DNA of 64,000 nt, taken from NCBI GenBank assembly GCA_963281155.1, contig CAUJLY010000005.1:1240001-1304000 (forward strand), given 5' to 3'. The stretch comes from Rhabditophanes sp. KR3021. Its lineage: Eukaryota; Nematoda; Chromadorea; Rhabditida; Alloionematidae. This document shows, piece by piece, positions 8,869-57,298 of the stretch (the first letter of the stretch is position 1; each line of letters starts with the position of its first letter). Both the position numbers and the translations under genes were made by a program. Under the pieces are notes generated by a model. The model worked only from the letters and a program-made list of their open reading frames with translations, did not search any database and had not been told where the DNA came from.

Positions 8869-16895
<8,027 letters not shown>

Positions 16896-47578: not shown

Positions 47579-50500
47579 TCAACAGTTAGATTGTCTTCCA
47601 ACACTTCTAGTTCTTGTTCTGACTTTAACGGAATGTGAACTTTTACGTTCATCGAAGCCAATTTTTCTTTCTCCAGATGAAGAGTAGGGAGATTCATAAT
47701 TGTTTGGGGCTTTGTAATCTTGGTGTAAGAAGCTTTTGTTAGGAACTGCATTCATTTTTCGTGATCTGTTGATGGCCATTTTCTTTAGACTACCATTGTC
47801 ACTTGACTCATGACCACCATATCCTTCTCTATGGAGAGATGAAGAACTCGAGCCCGCAACTGGCACATTGTTCCATAAGACAACTGACTCTACACCCGCT
47901 TCATTAAAAGGAGATCCGCCATTCAGAGATTCATTGCTAATCATTTGACTTGCTACAGTAAAGCTTTCAACGGATGAAACTTTTGACTTCAAGTATTCTA
48001 TTTCCAAGTTCTTTACTTCTTCCACATTCTTAATCTTAGTCTGAAGTTTGTTCATCTCCTGGAATTGGAACACCTTTAGCTTGTCTACCTTTTCTTTCAA
48101 ATCTTTCTTTTCGTTTTCTGTTCGCTCAAATTTGCTTTCAATTTTACTTTTTTCATTTGAAACTTCATGGTACCTATTTGTAATAGTAGATAATTCATTT
48201 CTTAACTTGTTGCAGGCTTCCTCAAGATCCCCAATTTTGCCTTCTTTGACATTAAGCATGTTAAGCAACTTTTCCATATGTGAACTGCTTTCGGAACTTT
48301 CACTTTTCTTTGCCAATATTTCGGCTTTGCATTTTAATAGTTGTCTTTCAAGGGAAGTGACGGTAGCTTGGAGAGTTTGTTTTGCTTCAGTTTCCTGAGC
48401 CAATTGCTTTCTAAGATAAATTATTTGTGGAATAGAATATAGAGAACTAACTTTATTACCTTGCAAAATAATACATTAACATATACAATCGGTGTAAGAG
48501 ATAATAGTGGGATAGAGATACAAGGAAAGGACATGCTATCATCATGGGCGTATCCGACATCCCCCGGTTAAAACAGTTCGCACGGAGCTTACTGTGCGGA
48601 AGTGGATTTTACCAAATGTATCTTTTATACAAAATACTTGACCATCACGTGACACAATAATACATTTTTCCCAGCTAAGGCCATCTGAATCAGGATGTCT
48701 TAAAAAGTATCCCTCAGTGTTTAATTTTTCAGTTACCCTTTTTGGTTGTTTGCTCAGGTCAAAAGGTTGAATAGTTTTTGTTAAAAATTGATGTTCAACT
48801 GTCTCGTCGGTGTTTTTTACCATGCGGGTGTTGATTTTTTGTTTTGCTTTTTTCAAAGCTTTAGTTTTACATTCATTTTTAAATTTAACAATTGCATCTT
48901 TTATGGTTCTAACTGCTCTTTCAGCATAGCCATTTGTATGATGTTCGTACGCTATAGCGTAGTCAAGACCTATGTTATTACTATTCAAAAAATTAGTGAA
49001 ATCTTTGTGTTTAAAGCATTTTTGATTGTCACAGACAATTTTTTGAGGGAACCCACGTATTTGTGCAAATTTGTTCAACTCTTTCACAATTGTTTTTGTG
49101 TCTTGTTTCTGCACCCATTCAGCGTAAATGAGTTTGCTGAAACAATCAACGATTACAAGGAACCATGATTTATATTGTTCAACGTAACCTAAATCCATAT
49201 GCACTCTTTCAAGGGGGTATCTACATTTAGGCCAACTTTTAAAAATTTTTCTTTTTCGACAGGTTTCTAAACAGGTCGTACAACTAGCTATCAAGTCTTT
49301 GATTTCTGATGTTATGCCAGGTGCGTAGTACCTATTTTTGATTTGCCTGTAGGAGTCGACAAAACTTCTATGTAATGGCAAATGAATTTCTTTAACCAAC
49401 TTCTTATAGAGTGAGCGGGGAACAACCGGTCTATCTTTATTAATCACAAGTAACCCATTTTGATCTAGTGAGAGTTGGTGTCTCATCTTAATAAATTTAT
49501 TTAATTTTGTGTTTTTGGAAGCAGAGGGGAAGTTGTCTGAATCCAGCCATCTAATGACTTGTCTAAGAATGTTGCATTTATGTTGACATTCAGAGATGAG
49601 AGTGTTGTTAATACCTGTGGTGTTCAAAGCAATAATTTCCATCACTTCTACATCATCATCATCTGCACTATCTACAACCTGGTTAGGTTTTAGGCATCTA
49701 CTAAGACAATCAGCTAAAACATTCTTTTTACCGGCAATATGAATAATCTCTAGATCATACGCTTGAATCACCAGACTCCACCTTAGCAATCTATCGTTGA
49801 GATCTGCTTTTTTAAAGAAGGTAACTAGGGATTGGTGGTCTGTGAAGGCCTTAACTCTAGTATTGTAGATTATGTTTTTGTAGCGCTTTAAACTTTGCAC
49901 TAATGCCAATGCCTCTAAGTCGCTAATATGGTACCTATTTTCGGCATTTTTTAAGGATCTACTATAGAAAAGAATTGGTCTCATCATGCCATCTTTCTTT
50001 TGCATCAGAACACTACCTATTCCTTGATAACTAGCATCAACGTAGATTTCAAAAGGATTCGTACCAGCAACGGCACCTTTAATGTCTGGCTGTATTAGAA
50101 TTGGGGAATGTTTTACAGCACTTTTCACTTTTTCAAAAGCATCATTTTGGCAATCTAACCATTCAAATTTTTTTTTACTGATCAACTCGTAAAGGGGTTT
50201 GGTCATGGCTGCATGATCATAAATAAAACTCCTAAAGTAGTTGACAAAACCTAGGAAACTCTGTAGGGTTACCATGTCATAAGGTTTAGCAAAGTCAAGG
50301 CATTTCTTAACTTTTGCTTCATCCAGTTGGAGACCTTCCTTGCTGATTGTAAAACCAACAAAGTCTAACTTACTCACAAATAACCTGCATTTATCAGGGT
50401 TAATTTTAAGTTTTGCTTTGCCTAACCTAGTTAACACGAGTTCAAGTAACTTTTTGTGTTCTTCTTCTGTTTCTGTTGCCAGCAGAATATCATCAACATA

Positions 50501-53449
50501 GACAAACACAGATTTGCCGATAATATCCGGAAATAAACTTTCAACAAGTCTTTCAAACTCAGAAGGAGCGGTTGCCAGTCCAAAAGGTAGGACGTTAAAC
50601 TCAAACAGACCATAGTCTGTTGTAAAAGCGGTTATGGGCTTGGATTCTTCATCCAATTCAATTTGCCAGTAGCCTTTTGTACAATCCATGGTGGAGAAGT
50701 ACTTTTTGTTGTGAAGGGATAAAAGCAGTTGCTCGATGTTAGGCAGAGGGTAAGAGTCAAGCTTAATAACCTCGTTAAGTCGTCGAAAGTCAACACACAT
50801 TCGTATCGTTTTGTCCTTTTTTGGTACTAAAATAACCGGACTAGCCCATGGGCTTCTACTTTTTCGAATGACACCCATTCTCAACATCCCATCAATAATT
50901 TTCTTAAATTCATCCTTGATGGCTAAGGCAACTTGCCTTTTTTTGCTTCTGATAGGAGTAGCTTTGCCTATGTCAATCTTATGTTTGATAATGTTAGTTC
51001 TACCCAAATCTTCGGGGTGTTGGCTAAACACATCTTTAAATTTAATTTTTAAATCTTTAACTGTTTCGTTGCTATCTTTGAGAGTAGCAATCGTTCTGTT
51101 TTCGCTATCTTGTTCTAAGCAAGACATCAACTTTAGCCGTAGCTCTTTTGATCTATTCAATGCATTTGTACCTATTATAATATCTACATTTGCAAGGGTA
51201 TTTTTTGATATAAGACAATCAATTTGCTTGTCGAAAATTTTGATTTTCGTTTGACCTATAAGAGGTACTTTTTGCCCTTGTGCATCAGAAACTTTTAAGT
51301 GGGGTTGTAATTTGTGCACCTTCAAGCCATGTAATTTTTTAAAGAAACTATTGGTCAATAATGTCATCGACGCACCAGAATCAAGCAAAATGCTAGCATT
51401 AATGCCCTGTACAATAGATGAAATAGTGCACTTAGTGCCAAATAATAAACAATAATTATCAGAATTTATGGAAGGGGAAGAGGATGATAAATTAGCAAAA
51501 GAGGATACAATAGACTGGGAGTTATCCACCGCATTAATTTTTTGTTTATGTTGGTGATTGAAGTTACCGGCTGGTTTCTTTTCTCCCTGTTGTTTAGACT
51601 TCCAGCTAGGTTGCTTGTGCTCCTTGGGTTGTTGTTTCTTGACAACATCGGCTTTGTGTGAGTCTAAGAGTTGCGCAGCTAGTTTGAAACATAGATCCTC
51701 GGGAGACATACACTTATCTTCATAACATCCAACAATCAACTTAGCGGCTTTATCCTTTTGCTTGGTTTTGTTACATGCTTTAAGCAAGATCATGACTTTT
51801 GCGGTAACTTTGTCCAACTGATAAGGAACTACCTTGTGCAGTAATTGCTCCAAGTGAGATAAACTGGACACCGTATCATTTCTTAATTCATACTCCGTGA
51901 GACGCATAAACTTGTTTGCGTTTACTTTGGCTTCCACCTTTTTGTTGAGCATCAAACCTTCTTTCAATCGTTGTACTAACTCTTCGAAATCTAGATCATA
52001 ACCATCCAGCGTAAGTGTTTCAATGACGATTTTGGCCTGTTTTGTACAGAAAGACTCCAAAAGAACAACTTTTTGCTTGTTACTGAAGTTGCCATACCTC
52101 ATGTCGAATCCTGTATAGAACCGCTCCCACGATGACACTCCATCGAAATTTTGTAGTATCGGCAGGTTTGATCTCATAGCATCTGTAAGAGTTGCAGGTG
52201 GACTTGATATTGGCGTTACTTCTTTTTTTACAGCTTTTGTTTGGGCTTTCTTATATGTGTCTTGCCAACTTTCTGTCTTTTTGAGCATTTCTTCAACTTG
52301 TCCGATTTTGTTGAGTTCTTCATTATCATTGCCAGCCTTAGCTTTGCAATATTTTATAATCTTTCGGTGTAGCAATCCGAGAGTGACCAGATTAATTGAT
52401 CCATCCTGACATATAATGTCAGCAGTGGGAACCTCCATGTGGAATAGAATATAGAGAACTAACTTTATTACCTTGCAAAATAATACATTAACATATACAA
52501 TCGGTGTAAGAGATAATAGTGGGATAGAGATACAAGGAAAGGACATGCTATCATCATGGGCGTATCCGACATTATTAATGAAACAAAAACATTTAACTTA
52601 CTCAACAACTTTGATGTCATTTTCCAGTTTAGTAGCCTGAGCACGAATCTTTGCAATGTCCATTACCGATTCCCCACTTTTGACTACACAATCTTCCTCC
52701 TCGTCCAAATCACTCCAGCCATTCTTTTCACTTTTTGTACTACCTTTAAACATTTCACTTAATTCCATAAATTCTCTAGTTAATTTTTCGTGTTCTTTAG
52801 TCAGGAGTTGAAGAGAAGCTTTAAGTTTGTTTGACATAGCCTCGCTGTCATTTTTCTCTAGTTCGCATGTTTTGAGAGTATCAGCAACCCCAGTCAATGC
52901 TAATTGAGCTTCGTTAAACCTATGTTCGAGAGTAGTGTTTGTACTTTTGAGCTCGCAGACCTCACTTTCCAACAAACGCATTTTGTTGTCCATCCCGCCA
53001 ATTTTACTTTCATCTTCAGCAAGCACTTGTTTTAAATGAAGTAGCAGCTCTTGGATTTCTTCATTTTGTTTCTCCAATTTACCCGATTCCAATTCTGTTT
53101 CACTTAATTTACCAGACAATTTCTTAACTTCCTTTTCGGAATCAGTTAATTTGATCAAGACCTTTTCATATTTCCCCAAAACATCGCCCATCTTCTCTAA
53201 CTCTTCTTTCTGCCCCTTCGTCTCAACCTGAGCAGTTCGAAATTGGTTCAGTTCGACCTCTTGTTCTTTAACTTTGGTCACAAAGTCGTGAAGACGTTTG
53301 AGATCGAATCCCTCCTTCGAATCGCCCTTACTCTGCCCTCCGACAACTTTTTTCACCAATAACACCAACGAGCAGAAGCATATCGTCAATATAGACACAA
53401 TCACCTGCATATTCGGATGCTCCAGGTACTCATTCATATCGAACAGCAT
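47579..53449 (-). CDS. N-terminally membrane-anchored coiled-coil protein, interrupted by a retrotransposon in its intron
   Basis: Exons 53449-52602 and 48410-47579 join in frame (VVE to KQLAQETEAK) into 559 aa. The N-terminus is MLFDMNEYLEHPNMQ followed by one TM (about residues 15-35, VIVSILTICFCSLVLLVKKV) and long heptad-repeat coiled coil, a WSDLDEEED acidic patch with VMDIAKIRAQ, more coiled coil, and a Ser/Gly-rich basic tail (KVRTRTRSVGRQSNC). The layout (short lumen, TM, cytosolic coiled coil, low-complexity tail) resembles cTAGE5/TANGO1-type ER-exit proteins, but identity is not established. The intron 48411-52601 is 4,191 bp only because it contains a complete Ty3/gypsy element; without it the intron would be 40 bp. 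Both splice sites are intact, so the gene may still be expressed. Confidence 0.72.
48426..48559 (-). repeat. 3' LTR of the Ty3/gypsy element
   Basis: 134 bp, identical to 52438-52571. Contains the stop codon of the gag-pol frame. Confidence 0.96.
48542..52438 (-). CDS. gag-pol: Gag-Pol polyprotein of Ty3/gypsy element, intact frame
   Basis: About 1,298 aa from the ATG that overlaps the last base of the 5' LTR (MEVPTADIICQDG). Order: Gag capsid-like helices (NFDGVSSWERFYTGFDMRYG) without a visible CCHC zinc knuckle; aspartic protease (ILLDSGASMTLLTN); reverse transcriptase (VDFRRLNEVIKLDSYPLPN, CTKGYWQIEL, VLPFGLATAPSEF, VYVDDILLA); RNase H (FEIYVDASYQGIGSVL, ISDLEALALV); integrase with HHCC region (CTTCLETCR), and DDE residues in VHMDLGYVEQ, VCDNQKCF and NGYAERAVRTI. 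The order PR-RT-RH-IN is that of Ty3/gypsy. No frameshift separates gag from pol. The stop lies inside the 3' LTR. No chromodomain or env was seen. Confidence 0.94.
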   Translation of the reverse strand: MEVPTADIICQDGSINLVTLGLLHRKIIKYCKAKAGNDNEELNKIGQVEEMLKKTESWQDTYKKAQTKAVKKEVTPISSPPATLTDAMRSNLPILQNFDGVSSWERFYTGFDMRYGNFSNKQKVVLLESFCTKQAKIVIETLTLDGYDLDFEELVQRLKEGLMLNKKVEAKVNANKFMRLTEYELRNDTVSSLSHLEQLLHKVVPYQLDKVTAKVMILLKACNKTKQKDKAAKLIVGCYEDKCMSPEDLCFKLAAQLLDSHKADVVKKQQPKEHKQPSWKSKQQGEKKPAGNFNHQHKQKINAVDNSQSIVSSFANLSSSSPSINSDNYCLLFGTKCTISSIVQGINASILLDSGASMTLLTNSFFKKLHGLKVHKLQPHLKVSDAQGQKVPLIGQTKIKIFDKQIDCLISKNTLANVDIIIGTNALNRSKELRLKLMSCLEQDSENRTIATLKDSNETVKDLKIKFKDVFSQHPEDLGRTNIIKHKIDIGKATPIRSKKRQVALAIKDEFKKIIDGMLRMGVIRKSRSPWASPVILVPKKDKTIRMCVDFRRLNEVIKLDSYPLPNIEQLLLSLHNKKYFSTMDCTKGYWQIELDEESKPITAFTTDYGLFEFNVLPFGLATAPSEFERLVESLFPDIIGKSVFVYVDDILLATETEEEHKKLLELVLTRLGKAKLKINPDKCRLFVSKLDFVGFTISKEGLQLDEAKVKKCLDFAKPYDMVTLQSFLGFVNYFRSFIYDHAAMTKPLYELISKKKFEWLDCQNDAFEKVKSAVKHSPILIQPDIKGAVAGTNPFEIYVDASYQGIGSVLMQKKDGMMRPILFYSRSLKNAENRYHISDLEALALVQSLKRYKNIIYNTRVKAFTDHQSLVTFFKKADLNDRLLRWSLVIQAYDLEIIHIAGKKNVLADCLSRCLKPNQVVDSADDDDVEVMEIIALNTTGINNTLISECQHKCNILRQVIRWLDSDNFPSASKNTKLNKFIKMRHQLSLDQNGLLVINKDRPVVPRSLYKKLVKEIHLPLHRSFVDSYRQIKNRYYAPGITSEIKDLIASCTTCLETCRKRKIFKSWPKCRYPLERVHMDLGYVEQYKSWFLVIVDCFSKLIYAEWVQKQDTKTIVKELNKFAQIRGFPQKIVCDNQKCFKHKDFTNFLNSNNIGLDYAIAYEHHTNGYAERAVRTIKDAIVKFKNECKTKALKKAKQKINTRMVKNTDETVEHQFLTKTIQPFDLSKQPKRVTEKLNTEGYFLRHPDSDGLSWEKCIIVSRDGQVFCIKDTFGKIHFRTVSSVRTVLTGGCRIRP
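52438..52571 (-). repeat. 5' LTR of the Ty3/gypsy element
   Basis: 134 bp, identical to the other LTR. Its final base is the A of the proposed gag start codon. Confidence 0.96.
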
Positions 53450-54026: not shown

Positions 54027-56042
54027 TTATGGATTGGTGGTTTTGGCTTGATGAAGGACATTGGCAGCTTCATTGACTTTAGCTTGAAGAAGTTCTTCAT
54101 TGTCAAGCATCATCAAGAGTTCGGAGTTGTCCATTTCGAGCATCATGCCGGTGATTTTTCCAACGTCAGCGTCTTTGCAGTTCTTGGCCACGAGGGGGTA
54201 TATTCTTTCCCCGATCATTTGCTTTTGCTCTTGGACAGAGGCTTTGGCAAGCATTTGGGAGGTCAATGCTTCTTGTGGACCTCCTGTTGGTGGGGCCATC
54301 ATGTCACTTTGGTGTTGTCCCATTGGAGCTCTTTGTTGTTGTTGCATGCCATAGTAGTTTCCTTGCATGCCTGGTGCTTTGCCTCCAATTTGTTGAGGAG
54401 CAATTCTCATGTTTTGCCCTTGAACCATGGTTGGAGTTATTCTTGGGTTTCTTCCACCACTTGGATTGAATTGTCTGGGGCCTCCGTTGTTTGGTGGTCT
54501 GTTTCCACGCATTTGGTTGCCTTGGTATCCGCCTCCTTGTTGTGGTTGAACCATGAATTGCCCTGGTTGGCCTTGTTGGAAGTTACCCTGTGGTGGCATT
54601 TGGTTCCATCTTGGGATGAGATTTCTGTTTCCAGCATTGATTGCGGTTTGAGGGTATTGTGGTCTGCCATTGGCTCCCATTGGCTGGGAAACAAAGAAAC
54701 CACCTCCTGGTTGGTACATGTTTGGGGGTATCATTTGCTGGTGTGGTCTTCCCATGTTGTTGACGCGATGCATGTAGTGAGTAGCCAATTGAGCTCTTCT
54801 TTCTTCCTTTCTTTGAGCTAAAGCAACATACAATGGTTTGATTCCGAACATTTTTCCGTTCATTTCTGTGACGGCTTTGGTGGCATCAGTTCTGGACTCG
54901 AAACAGACGAATCCGAAACCTTTGGAACGATCTTGTTCGTCTTTCATGATCTTGGCGGAGGTAATCTTTCCGAACCCTTCAAATTGCTCACGAAGTTGAT
55001 CATCACTCACAGAATCTTCCAAATTCTTGACGTACAAGTTGACTCCAGTGAACTTGGCGAGTCTTTCTTGCTTTTGCATGTCGTGTCTCATTCTGAGGTC
55101 GGTTACTCTTTCGTATTTCTTCTGAGCACGACCGACATACAATTTCTTGTCAGTGTTTGGAACGATACTGTCATTCATGGCATCGACAGCAGCCTTAGCG
55201 TCTTCGGCATTTAAGAAACAGACGAATCCAAAACCTTTACACTTCCCATCTTCTTCCTTCATCACAACGGATGAGGTAACTTCTCCGAACTTTTCGAACA
55301 TAGCCATCAAGTCGGCATCATCAAATTTGTCTTCGAAGTTCTTGACGAAGACATTGGTAAACTCTTGATCTTTTTCACCATTGTCAGTTCTACGGGCATC
55401 TTTTTGGATGAATTTGCCAACGTAAACTTTCTTTCCGTCGAGAAGCATTCCATTGACTCTTTCAATGGCTTTGATGGCGGCTTCTTCAGTCTCAAAGTGG
55501 ATGAAACCATATCCTTTGGAGCTTCCAGTTTCATCGGTAGCAACTTTGCAGGAAAGGATGTTTCCGAACATAGAGAAGGTGTCATGAATAGATTTAGTAT
55601 CAATTGACTTGTCCATGTTCTTGATGAAAACATTCCCAGCTCCTGATCTTCTCAAGGATGGATCTCTTTGAGACCACATGATGCGCATGGGTCTGTCGTC
55701 AAGTGGCTCAAAGTTCATGGTCTCAAGAGCTGATTCGGCGTCTTCAACCTTTTCGAAGTTGACGTAAGCGTAGCCGAGAGAGTTACGGGTGACTGTGTCT
55801 CTGCACACACGGATCGAGATGACAGTTCCAGCGGAAGAAAATTGAGTAAACAATTTGGCTTCAGTGACATCTGGATGAAGATCTCCAACATAAAGTGAAG
55901 CGGACTGGTAACTCTTTGCGTTTGAAGCAGGAGCGGCTGGGGCAGCTGGGGTGGTTCCTGGAGCGGCAGGTGCTGGGGGAGGTTGTGCAGAGACGGCTGT
56001 TGGTACTGGAGCAGCGGTGTTATTCGTAGCAACGGCGGACAT
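54027..56042 (-). CDS. PABPC: Cytoplasmic poly(A)-binding protein
   Basis: One exon of 671 aa. Four RRMs lie at about 47-125 (ASLYVGDLHPDVTEAKLF, LGYAYVNF), 135-212 (GNVFIKNMDKSID, SKGYGFIHFE), 227-307 (TNVFVKNFEDKF, CKGFGFVCF) and 335-412 (VNLYVKNLEDSVSDDQL, SKGFGFVCFES). A Pro/Gln/Gly/Met linker follows, then a C-terminal MLLE domain (about 590-665) with TGMMLEMDNSELLMMLDN, the peptide pocket for PAM2 motifs. The N-terminus carries an Ala/Pro-rich extension of about 45 residues. It binds mRNA poly(A) tails and couples them to eIF4G and deadenylases. An intronless PABPC could be a retrocopy, but full conservation and clean 5' context favour the functional gene. Long antisense open frames here are codon-bias shadows. 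Confidence 0.97.
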   Translation of the reverse strand: MSAVATNNTAAPVPTAVSAQPPPAPAAPGTTPAAPAAPASNAKSYQSASLYVGDLHPDVTEAKLFTQFSSAGTVISIRVCRDTVTRNSLGYAYVNFEKVEDAESALETMNFEPLDDRPMRIMWSQRDPSLRRSGAGNVFIKNMDKSIDTKSIHDTFSMFGNILSCKVATDETGSSKGYGFIHFETEEAAIKAIERVNGMLLDGKKVYVGKFIQKDARRTDNGEKDQEFTNVFVKNFEDKFDDADLMAMFEKFGEVTSSVVMKEEDGKCKGFGFVCFLNAEDAKAAVDAMNDSIVPNTDKKLYVGRAQKKYERVTDLRMRHDMQKQERLAKFTGVNLYVKNLEDSVSDDQLREQFEGFGKITSAKIMKDEQDRSKGFGFVCFESRTDATKAVTEMNGKMFGIKPLYVALAQRKEERRAQLATHYMHRVNNMGRPHQQMIPPNMYQPGGGFFVSQPMGANGRPQYPQTAINAGNRNLIPRWNQMPPQGNFQQGQPGQFMVQPQQGGGYQGNQMRGNRPPNNGGPRQFNPSGGRNPRITPTMVQGQNMRIAPQQIGGKAPGMQGNYYGMQQQQRAPMGQHQSDMMAPPTGGPQEALTSQMLAKASVQEQKQMIGERIYPLVAKNCKDADVGKITGMMLEMDNSELLMMLDNEELLQAKVNEAANVLHQAKTTNP

Positions 56043-57298
56043 GATTTCGATCTAAACATCCAATTAAATGATTAATGGTTCACCTATTTTAGTAACCTAC
56101 TTTTATTCAAGATGTTAACAAGAAATATTTTTTTGAATTTTTTATAGTTTTATTAATTTTTTTTTGCTTTTGTGAATATATATAAACCTCAACAGACAAA
56201 GAAACCTTCAAGAATAGTTAATGAAGATATACTTTGGTCCTTAAGAAGTCTGAAAGTAGAGAAAATATTTTTATTATCGGTTATTAATGTTGCTTTGTGC
56301 AAATAAATGAGATGAGCAAACATTATAAGAGCATAGATGATCTTATTAATTTAATTAATTTTTTTCATCACCCTTTAAAAGATCGAAAGTGTTTTAAACG
56401 TTTACAAACCTCAAATCGCGACTAAATAAAGTTTAAAATTAAAAAGTTCGTGAATTTTTACATAGGGAAGATCATACACAGGGATGTTGGGAAAGTGTAT
56501 ATTTTGAGTGTTGGTAGTAGTGATAGAGAGACAACTATTAAAGACATTCCAAGCAAGAGGGCAGAGGTGAACTATAAGGTCCAAGGCACGTGATATGATT
56601 AATCTTTTGAAAACACTTCAAAGTATACGTAATCAAACCGTAACAATGTTCCATAATATGGTAATGTTATGAAAATATTATGCATAATCAAATCGTCATA
56701 AAAATCACCTCTTCTAAATTAAGAACCAACTTGCAAACACACAAAACTTGAATAATACTTAATCTACAATTATGTTATCTTTTTATACTAAAAGACTAGG
56801 ACTGGGCTGGCTTTCAAAAGGTTGGGTCTTTTTTTCCAATAATGGGCAGGATTTGACTATCATGTGAATGTGGAATGGAGATGAAAGAGCGGGATATCCT
56901 TAGCTGAGGCAATGTATTTCATCAAACCATTAGCTATAAGCACTTTATAGAGTGCCTATCATTTCGCAATAGGCTAATAAAATGTTTTGACAGGCAATCT
57001 TGATAGATTAAAAAGTGTATGCTTGTTGTGCACCGAATTTAGTATATTTTGGTTGTAAAGGAAACTATACATGGTGGCGTGGTTTGACTATATGTCTGTT
57101 CGTTGGTAATATTGTGCGTAATATTCGTGCCAGGATAAACTTTGTTTTGAAATTAATAGTATTGGGAGTATTTTGGTCTTCTTATTTTACATGATTGATA
57201 AGAAGAAGAATTGCTCTTACCAATTTTAAGTTGCTGATTAGGAATCATAACACCGACGTTTACTGTTAGATCCATTCGTAGCATATAATTAAGTCACG
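56043..57298. other. Divergent promoter region, PABPC / COP1
   Basis: About 1.25 kb without a supported gene. A GC-richer block near 56.7-57.0 kb has no coding frame. No tRNA or repeat recognised. Confidence 0.45.

What the first reader, a model, noticed from the sequence alone, without database searches (positions are those of the whole stretch)
48411..52601. Young Ty3/gypsy element sits inside a 40-bp intron, ten bases from the acceptor
Removing the element and one TTATT copy leaves a normal 40-bp GT-AG intron with the coding frame intact (VVE|KQLAQ). The identical LTRs show very recent insertion. The element is in the host's sense orientation and carries its own intact gag-pol, so host and element transcripts can be spliced or read through one another. 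It is a natural test of how a genome with tiny introns tolerates a 4.2-kb intron, and of nested expression.
Basis: partly seen in the sequence, partly recalled or inferred. Interest (0 to 1): 0.75.

Follow-up and report, generated by a model that had tools for sequence, protein, structure and literature searches.

The report
Retrotransposon lodged in a tiny intron
A 4.1-kilobase jumping element, one of at least eleven closely similar young copies, sits inside what would otherwise be a 40-base intron of a gene in the asexual worm Rhabditophanes diutinus; it likely disrupts this copy of the gene and is likely tolerated because an undisturbed copy remains, so it offers a test of how a genome with tiny introns copes with such hits.

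Summary
The element is 48426-52571 (minus strand): identical 134-bp LTRs, TTATT duplication, tRNA-Gln-type primer site, one 1,299-codon gag-pol frame. Without it the flanks form a 40-nt GT-AG intron in frame. The genome is Rhabditophanes diutinus KR3021, a parthenogenetic nematode. The spliced 559-aa host protein is in UniRef, so the exons are one annotated gene. The family is young: 11 near-full copies found, 10 with identical LTR pairs, two identical to this one over the 3,268 nt compared. Three of 11 lie in or at 39-42-nt introns, two in exon frames. One exonic site (E6) is continuous in a UniRef protein of the same strain, so the assembly behind that protein lacked the insertion: at least that copy is polymorphic. 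Hence the UniRef model does not show that the worm splices over a 4.2-kb intron. My reading: a recent, likely disruptive insertion, likely masked by an empty allele kept by non-reductional parthenogenesis. Normal long-intron splicing remains possible; no RNA was available and no empty allele of this site was seen. Enrichment in tiny introns (2 of the 10 other copies against about 1.5%) is suggestive only. New member of a known kind.

The parts
52601..53449 (-). host exon 1: predicted membrane-anchored coiled-coil N-terminal part (283 codons, the last completed by exon 2)
   Evidence: ORF; identical to the N-terminal part of UniRef P0001; no Pfam family above its cut-off; membrane anchor judged by eye
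52596..52601 (-). 5' splice site GTAAGT of the host intron; its TAA is the only stop between the host frame and the gag-pol frame
   Evidence: donor score 6.6, window short introns 2.1-8.0
52572..52576 (-). target-site duplication, upstream copy
48426..52571 (-). Ty3/gypsy element, 4,146 bp, in host sense direction
52438..52571 (-). 5' LTR, 134 bp, TGTCGG...CCACA; its gag frame is open for 44 codons (chance about 0.09)
52464..52469 (-). AATAAA in the 5' LTR (also at 48452-48457 in the 3' LTR), predicted cleavage and polyadenylation signal
   Evidence: function inferred
52422..52437 (-). primer-binding site; the first 10 nt complement the 3' end (with CCA) of host tRNA-Gln; the gag ATG uses the last LTR base plus the first two bases of this site
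52406..52407 (-). best-scoring acceptor AG inside the element (first exon base 52405), 196 nt from the host donor; would put the joined mRNA out of the gag frame
   Evidence: score 6.7 against 6.0 for the native acceptor; use is predicted only
52548..52549 (-). first AG after the host branch region, in the 5' LTR (first exon base 52547); use would fuse host exon 1 in frame to gag-pol
   Evidence: weak acceptor, score -0.1
48542..52438 (-). gag-pol, 1,298 aa plus stop; the stop lies inside the 3' LTR
   Evidence: DSG 51368-51388, YVDD 50489-50506, HHCC 49271-49384, integrase D, D, E motifs 49178-48914
48560..48575 (-). polypurine tract next to the 3' LTR
48426..48559 (-). 3' LTR, identical to the 5' LTR
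48421..48425 (-). target-site duplication, downstream copy
48411..48420 (-). last 10 nt of the host intron with native acceptor CTTAG
   Evidence: score 6.0, window short introns 1.0-9.4
47579..48410 (-). host exon 2: coiled-coil and C-terminal part, to the stop codon
   Evidence: ORF; identical to the C-terminal part of UniRef P0001

Best explanation
A 4,146-bp Ty3/gypsy retrotransposon lies in the sense direction inside what is, without it, a 40-nt intron of a Rhabditophanes diutinus gene, and it is likely a recent insertion that disrupts this copy of the gene and is tolerated because an empty copy is likely still present in the strain. Shown: anatomy, intron, single annotated gene, youth of the family, and a template of the same strain without one sister insertion (E6). 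Inferred: transcripts of the occupied copy are predicted to end at the AATAAA in the 5' LTR, or to splice from the host donor to an acceptor in gag (best-scoring at 52405) about 0.2 kb away rather than to the native acceptor 4.2 kb away; either would truncate the 559-aa protein soon after residue 283. Inferred: the parthenogenetic division, which keeps both homologues, would hold such a hit heterozygous, so selection against it is weak at first; older copies are then lost from genes or persist as solo LTRs between genes.
For: Anatomy and intron. One annotated gene: P0001, 100% over 559 aa. Species: UniRef name and assembly size, six scaffold lengths and strain in PMC10676810 section 15 against G000. 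Youth: LTR pairs identical in 10 of 11 near-full copies; E4 and E5 show 0 differences from this copy over 3,268 nt compared each; the RT piece is identical in 7 of 11. Polymorphism of the family: the E6 exon is continuous in UniRef P0122 and no GT-AG removal restores it. Diploidy kept: passages of PMC11258339 report an aborted meiosis I, one polar body and retained diploidy. Age contrast: 0 of 15 distinct older LTR sites fall in a predicted exon, against 164 of 400 random window positions; P = 0.0004 if independent. Signals: acceptor at 52405 scores 6.7, native 6.0, LTR AATAAA in sense.
Against: No empty allele was seen at this site; the E6 test covers one of 11 copies. The native acceptor and donor score as normal and the scores come from 17 donors and 14 acceptors picked by hand, including those of E1, E4 and E11. 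Longer introns exist here: E2 sits in a gap of about 1.3 kb inside an oxoglutarate-dehydrogenase-like gene, so splicing machinery for kilobase introns is present. The young copies are not significantly short of exon hits (2 of 11 against 41%, P = 0.11). The older sites were judged on flanks of only 0.8-1.5 kb, in which the caller missed E11.
Confidence: 0.5

Rival explanations
1. The element is simply carried as a 4,191-nt intron: the native donor and acceptor are still used, the 559-aa protein is made, and the insertion is nearly neutral.
For: Both native splice sites are intact and of normal score; the annotated protein is the spliced one; an intron-like gap of about 1.3 kb exists in another gene.
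Against: The branch region TTCATTAAT now lies 5' of the element, 4.2 kb from the native AG, so a new branch point near the LTR end is needed; acceptors and an AATAAA lie in between; P0001 cannot tell 40 from 4,191 nt removed; E6 shows that annotation can come from a template without insertions.
Confidence: 0.32
2. The occupied allele makes a fusion of host exon 1 to Gag-Pol: splicing to the first AG in the LTR (52547) keeps frame, the LTR frame is open, and a membrane-anchored coiled coil would be placed in front of Gag.
For: 54-nt intron, frame kept, LTR frame 1 without stop for 44 codons, one stop (TAA of the donor) between the host and gag frames.
Against: That AG scores -0.1, below all 20 short-intron acceptors of the window (1.0-9.4); the older LTR copies carry 1-2-base length changes; the annotated protein P0002 starts at the ATG on the LTR border; agreement of frame alone is a one-in-three event.
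Confidence: 0.06
3. The family integrates preferentially into tiny introns or at splice sites, so this placement is directed rather than chance.
For: E1 (40 nt), E4 (TSD CAGTC across the acceptor of a 42-nt innexin intron) and E11 (39-nt intron of an Na/Ca-exchanger-like gene) are 3 of 11; tiny introns are about 1.5% of the window; without the seed copy 2 of 10, P = 0.009.
Against: Two of 11 lie in exon frames; with exons excluded from the target P rises to 0.03 (which kept n = 10); 0 of 15 distinct older sites lie in tiny introns; TSDs show no common motif by eye; the sites were looked at before the test was framed, and E11 is found by the caller only with 1.5-kb flanks or by hand.
Confidence: 0.1
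4. Assembly artefact: the element was misplaced or the two exons were joined wrongly.
For: No reads were available to check.
Against: Clean 5-bp TSD, TG..CA ends, exact empty-site frame and intron, and an independent protein model for the flanks.
Confidence: 0.02

Closest known systems
Cer1 of Caenorhabditis elegans in plg-1 (Ty3/gypsy)
   Same: Nematode Ty3/gypsy element with one long gag-pol frame and identical LTRs, inserted in a host gene and polymorphic among strains (passages of PMC3315495).
   Different: Cer1 is a single intact copy in N2; here 11 near-full copies were found, with 134-bp LTRs, a tRNA-Gln rather than a tRNA-Pro primer site, and a landing inside a 40-nt intron. No tree was built, so kinship to Cer1 is not tested.
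Ty3 of yeast
   Same: Closest solved relatives of the RT-RNase H piece are Ty3 chains 4ol8 and 7q5b; 5-bp TSD; PR-RT-RH-IN order.
   Different: Ty3 targets tRNA gene starts (recalled); these sites are not beside tRNA genes as far as the window was scanned. No zinc-knuckle motif was found in the frame here.
Intronic endogenous retroviruses and LTRs of mammals
   Same: Sense-oriented copies in introns are expected to disturb splicing and polyadenylation; antisense bias is reported (search listing and outline of PMC1794541).
   Different: Those introns are kilobases long; here the insertion is 100 times the intron.

Membership tests
Ty3/gypsy LTR retrotransposon (Metaviridae) | Direct LTRs with TG..CA ends and a short target-site duplication | tested here: met
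Ty3/gypsy LTR retrotransposon (Metaviridae) | tRNA primer site after the 5' LTR and polypurine tract before the 3' LTR | tested here: met
   10-nt match to the tRNA-Gln 3' end (ARAGORN names the tRNA in 6 of 6 loci scanned); tract ACCGGGGGA
Ty3/gypsy LTR retrotransposon (Metaviridae) | Order protease, RT, RNase H, integrase | tested here: met
   Pfam RVT_1, RT_RNaseH, Integrase_H2C2, rve above cut-off; protease families near cut-off, RVP_2 and Asp_protease_2 just above; motifs
Ty3/gypsy LTR retrotransposon (Metaviridae) | RT nearest to Ty3-type RT | tested here: met
   top PDB matches are Ty3; no tree built
Ty3/gypsy LTR retrotransposon (Metaviridae) | Recognisable Gag | tested here: inconclusive
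   first 320 aa match no Pfam family
Ty3/gypsy LTR retrotransposon (Metaviridae) | Transposes via RNA | not testable with these tools
   inferred from identical LTR pairs and TSDs
Insertion in a host spliceosomal intron | Empty site is a GT-AG intron that keeps frame in one gene | tested here: met
Insertion in a host spliceosomal intron | The occupied intron is removed from RNA | not testable with these tools
   no RNA data
Cer1 lineage | RT groups with Cer1 | not tested
   no tree was built

The most novel reading that the evidence does not exclude
A nematode Ty3-type element that uses the tiny introns of its host as a landing niche: its integration complex is drawn to introns or splice sites of active genes, its target duplication can copy the acceptor (E4), and its stop-free LTR frame lets host exons read into gag-pol. 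In a parthenogen that keeps both homologues, such hits accumulate unpunished until exposed.
Probability: 0.1. Interest if true: 0.75.

Novelty: new member of a known kind. Interest (0 to 1): 0.42.

Why it matters
The family gives at least three matched natural experiments (sense in a 40-nt intron, antisense in a 39-nt intron, antisense across the acceptor of a 42-nt intron) plus two exonic hits by closely similar copies, in a worm kept on plates and frozen like C. elegans (PMC7738172, passages). That makes testable how a splicing system tuned to about 40 nt handles a 4.2-kb insert, and whether asexual diploidy shelters new insertions. An LTR element in a gene is in itself ordinary.

Tried and rejected
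Intron targeting looked strong at first (about seven of 11 by eye from flank motifs); reading frames removed E6 (exon), E9 (12 nt past a stop codon) and left E3, E5, E7, E8 unsettled, so it is kept only as a weak rival. A self-trained gene caller ran away (1,276 introns) and a second gave few confident introns (24); both were dropped for the seeded one, whose seeds include the E1, E4 and E11 splice sites, so its calls there are partly circular; independent support is the innexin match across the E4 junction, while the exchanger match for E11 lies outside its junction. Dating by the LTR pair alone was rejected: zero changes in 268 sites only bounds the age to about 4 million generations at a recalled rate of 2.7e-9, against about 170,000 from 3,268 nt shared with E4 or E5. 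No tRNA or Rfam match in the window. Nine paper searches listed no title on this insertion or on intron-targeting Ty3 elements; the 2016 genome paper is not held.

Full report
Observation. The window holds a complete LTR element at 48426-52571, minus strand: 134-bp LTRs identical at 134 of 134 positions, TTATT duplication, 4,146 bp. Leaving out the element and one TSD copy gives a 40-nt intron GTAAGT...CTTAG in phase 2 and a 559-aa frame.

Organism and gene. A protein search with the spliced product returned one protein, UniRef P0001 of Rhabditophanes sp. KR3021, 100% over 559 aa (7,988 candidates scored). The genome held as G000 (44,845,725 bases, six contigs) fits table 1 of PMC10676810 for R. 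diutinus KR3021: 44.8 Mb and six scaffolds of 11.2 to 2.3 Mb (section 15 read). The two exons are therefore one annotated gene. Its product has no relative at E <= 0.001 among the candidates scored and no Pfam family above its cut-off.

The element. Domain matches are RVT_1, RT_RNaseH, Integrase_H2C2 and rve, with weak protease matches; the first 320 aa match nothing. The RT piece is nearest to Ty3 among solved structures and, outside this species, to a Strongyloides papillosus protein at 54% identity (371 found, 120 listed). The layout is very compact: the gag ATG takes its A from the last LTR base and the rest from the primer site TGGAGGTTCC, which complements the 3' end of host tRNA-Gln over 10 nt. 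The pattern search gave 18 hits, 15 of them tRNA-Gln-like by eye; ARAGORN named tRNA-Gln in 6 of the 6 scanned. The stop lies inside the 3' LTR. A UniRef protein (P0002) starts at that ATG; it skips 151 residues around the protease, joining residue 290 to a point 151 aa further on.

The family. The LTR search scored 40 of 44 candidates: 22 form 11 pairs (E1 to E11, E1 being the window copy) and 18 stand alone. The count is a lower bound. LTR pairs are identical in 10 of 11; E9 differs by one 2-base gap. Over 3,268 nt compared per copy, E4 and E5 show no difference from E1; E10 and E11 have deletions. The RT piece is identical in 7 of 11, and an open frame of at least 1,305 aa remains in 5 of 11. 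TSDs of 5 of 5 bases flank all 11 pairs.

Where the copies lie. E1: 40-nt intron, sense. E4: the TSD CAGTC spans the acceptor of a 42-nt intron in an innexin gene, antisense, so the acceptor is duplicated; the innexin domain runs across the joined exons. E11: a 39-nt intron of an Na/Ca-exchanger-like gene, antisense. E2: a gap of about 1.3 kb or more between the two halves of a transketolase domain in an oxoglutarate-dehydrogenase-like gene, antisense. E6 and E10: inside exon frames, sense. E9: 12 nt after a stop codon, antisense; E8: 39 nt before a predicted start. E3 and E7 are called in predicted introns of 315 and 361 nt, E7 with a weak score; E5 has no predicted gene within 1.8 kb. I regard E3, E5, E7 and E8 as unsettled.

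Controls. With the seeded gene caller the window has 19 predicted genes and 25 introns, 20 of them at most 70 nt, about 1.5% of bases. Of 400 random window positions 164 fell in exons, 6 in introns up to 75 nt, 5 in longer introns and 225 elsewhere. With the same 0.8-kb flanks the 11 young copies gave 2 exon, 2 tiny-intron, 2 longer-intron and 5 none; E11 appeared as a 39-nt intron only with 1.5-kb flanks. The 18 lone LTR sites (15 distinct after removing duplicated flanks) gave 0 exon, 0 tiny-intron and 1 longer-intron. Tiny-intron excess without the seed copy: 2 of 10, P = 0.009 at 1.5% and 0.03 at 2.9%. Absence from exons of older sites: P = 0.0004 if independent; young copies, 2 of 11, P = 0.11. 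The pattern fits purging of genic copies with age, but the older flanks are short.

The decisive side test. P0001 cannot tell removal of 40 nt from removal of 4,191 nt. E6, however, lies inside an exon of a NACHT-WD gene. UniRef P0122 of the same strain reads straight through the site (361 of 361 aa in the region searched; the stretch spanning the site is present), and none of the six possible registers of removal gives GT..AG ends. So the template of P0122 lacked E6, while the present assembly has it. Insertions of this family are thus polymorphic, either between homologues or between cultures over time. By extension, which I did not observe, E1 may have an empty counterpart.

Mechanism. In the occupied allele the host donor scores as normal (6.6). 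The native acceptor (6.0) is 4.2 kb away; an acceptor in gag (52405, score 6.7) lies 196 nt away and would shift frame; the LTR carries AATAAA in sense. I predict truncated host transcripts. The first AG (52547) would fuse host exon 1 in frame to gag-pol through a stop-free LTR, an arresting arrangement, but it is a poor acceptor (-0.1). R. diutinus aborts meiosis I, extrudes one polar body and keeps diploidy (passages of PMC11258339), so a new insertion would tend to remain heterozygous (inference). That explains tolerance without long-intron splicing, but the latter is not excluded.

Known and new. Cer1 in plg-1 of C. elegans is the closest precedent: one gag-pol frame, identical LTRs, a gene disrupted, polymorphic among strains (passages of PMC3315495). 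Disturbance by sense-oriented intronic LTRs is known from mammals (listing and outline of PMC1794541). New here are the family in R. diutinus, its burst, and landings in introns 100 times shorter than the insert. The kind of thing is known; the set of copies is a good natural experiment.

Noticed in passing
window 48542-52438, P0002: The annotated 790-aa gag-pol protein of the family joins residue 290 to a point 151 residues further on, leaving out the protease region; by eye the joint fits a GTAACT...CTTAG intron, so it may be a predicted or real spliced form.
   Followed up: partly
G000:C5 (whole window): The window lies on the smallest of six chromosomes (2.36 Mb), which PMC10676810 section 15 describes as possibly special because it is seen in only about half of oocyte nuclei.
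   Followed up: no
G000:C6:11116463 and C6:10830116; C6:172350, C2:7870175 and C1:2553952: Solo LTRs with the same or nearly the same flanks at two and three places, so they were copied as part of larger repeats.
   Followed up: no
window 54027-56051 and 8869-10853: Poly(A)-binding protein gene without introns just upstream on the same strand as the host gene, and a polyubiquitin gene (named by eye).
   Followed up: no
G000:C2:7838208-7839500: A second, distinct Ty3-type element with an open frame of 1,086 aa, 36% identical in the RT piece.
   Followed up: no
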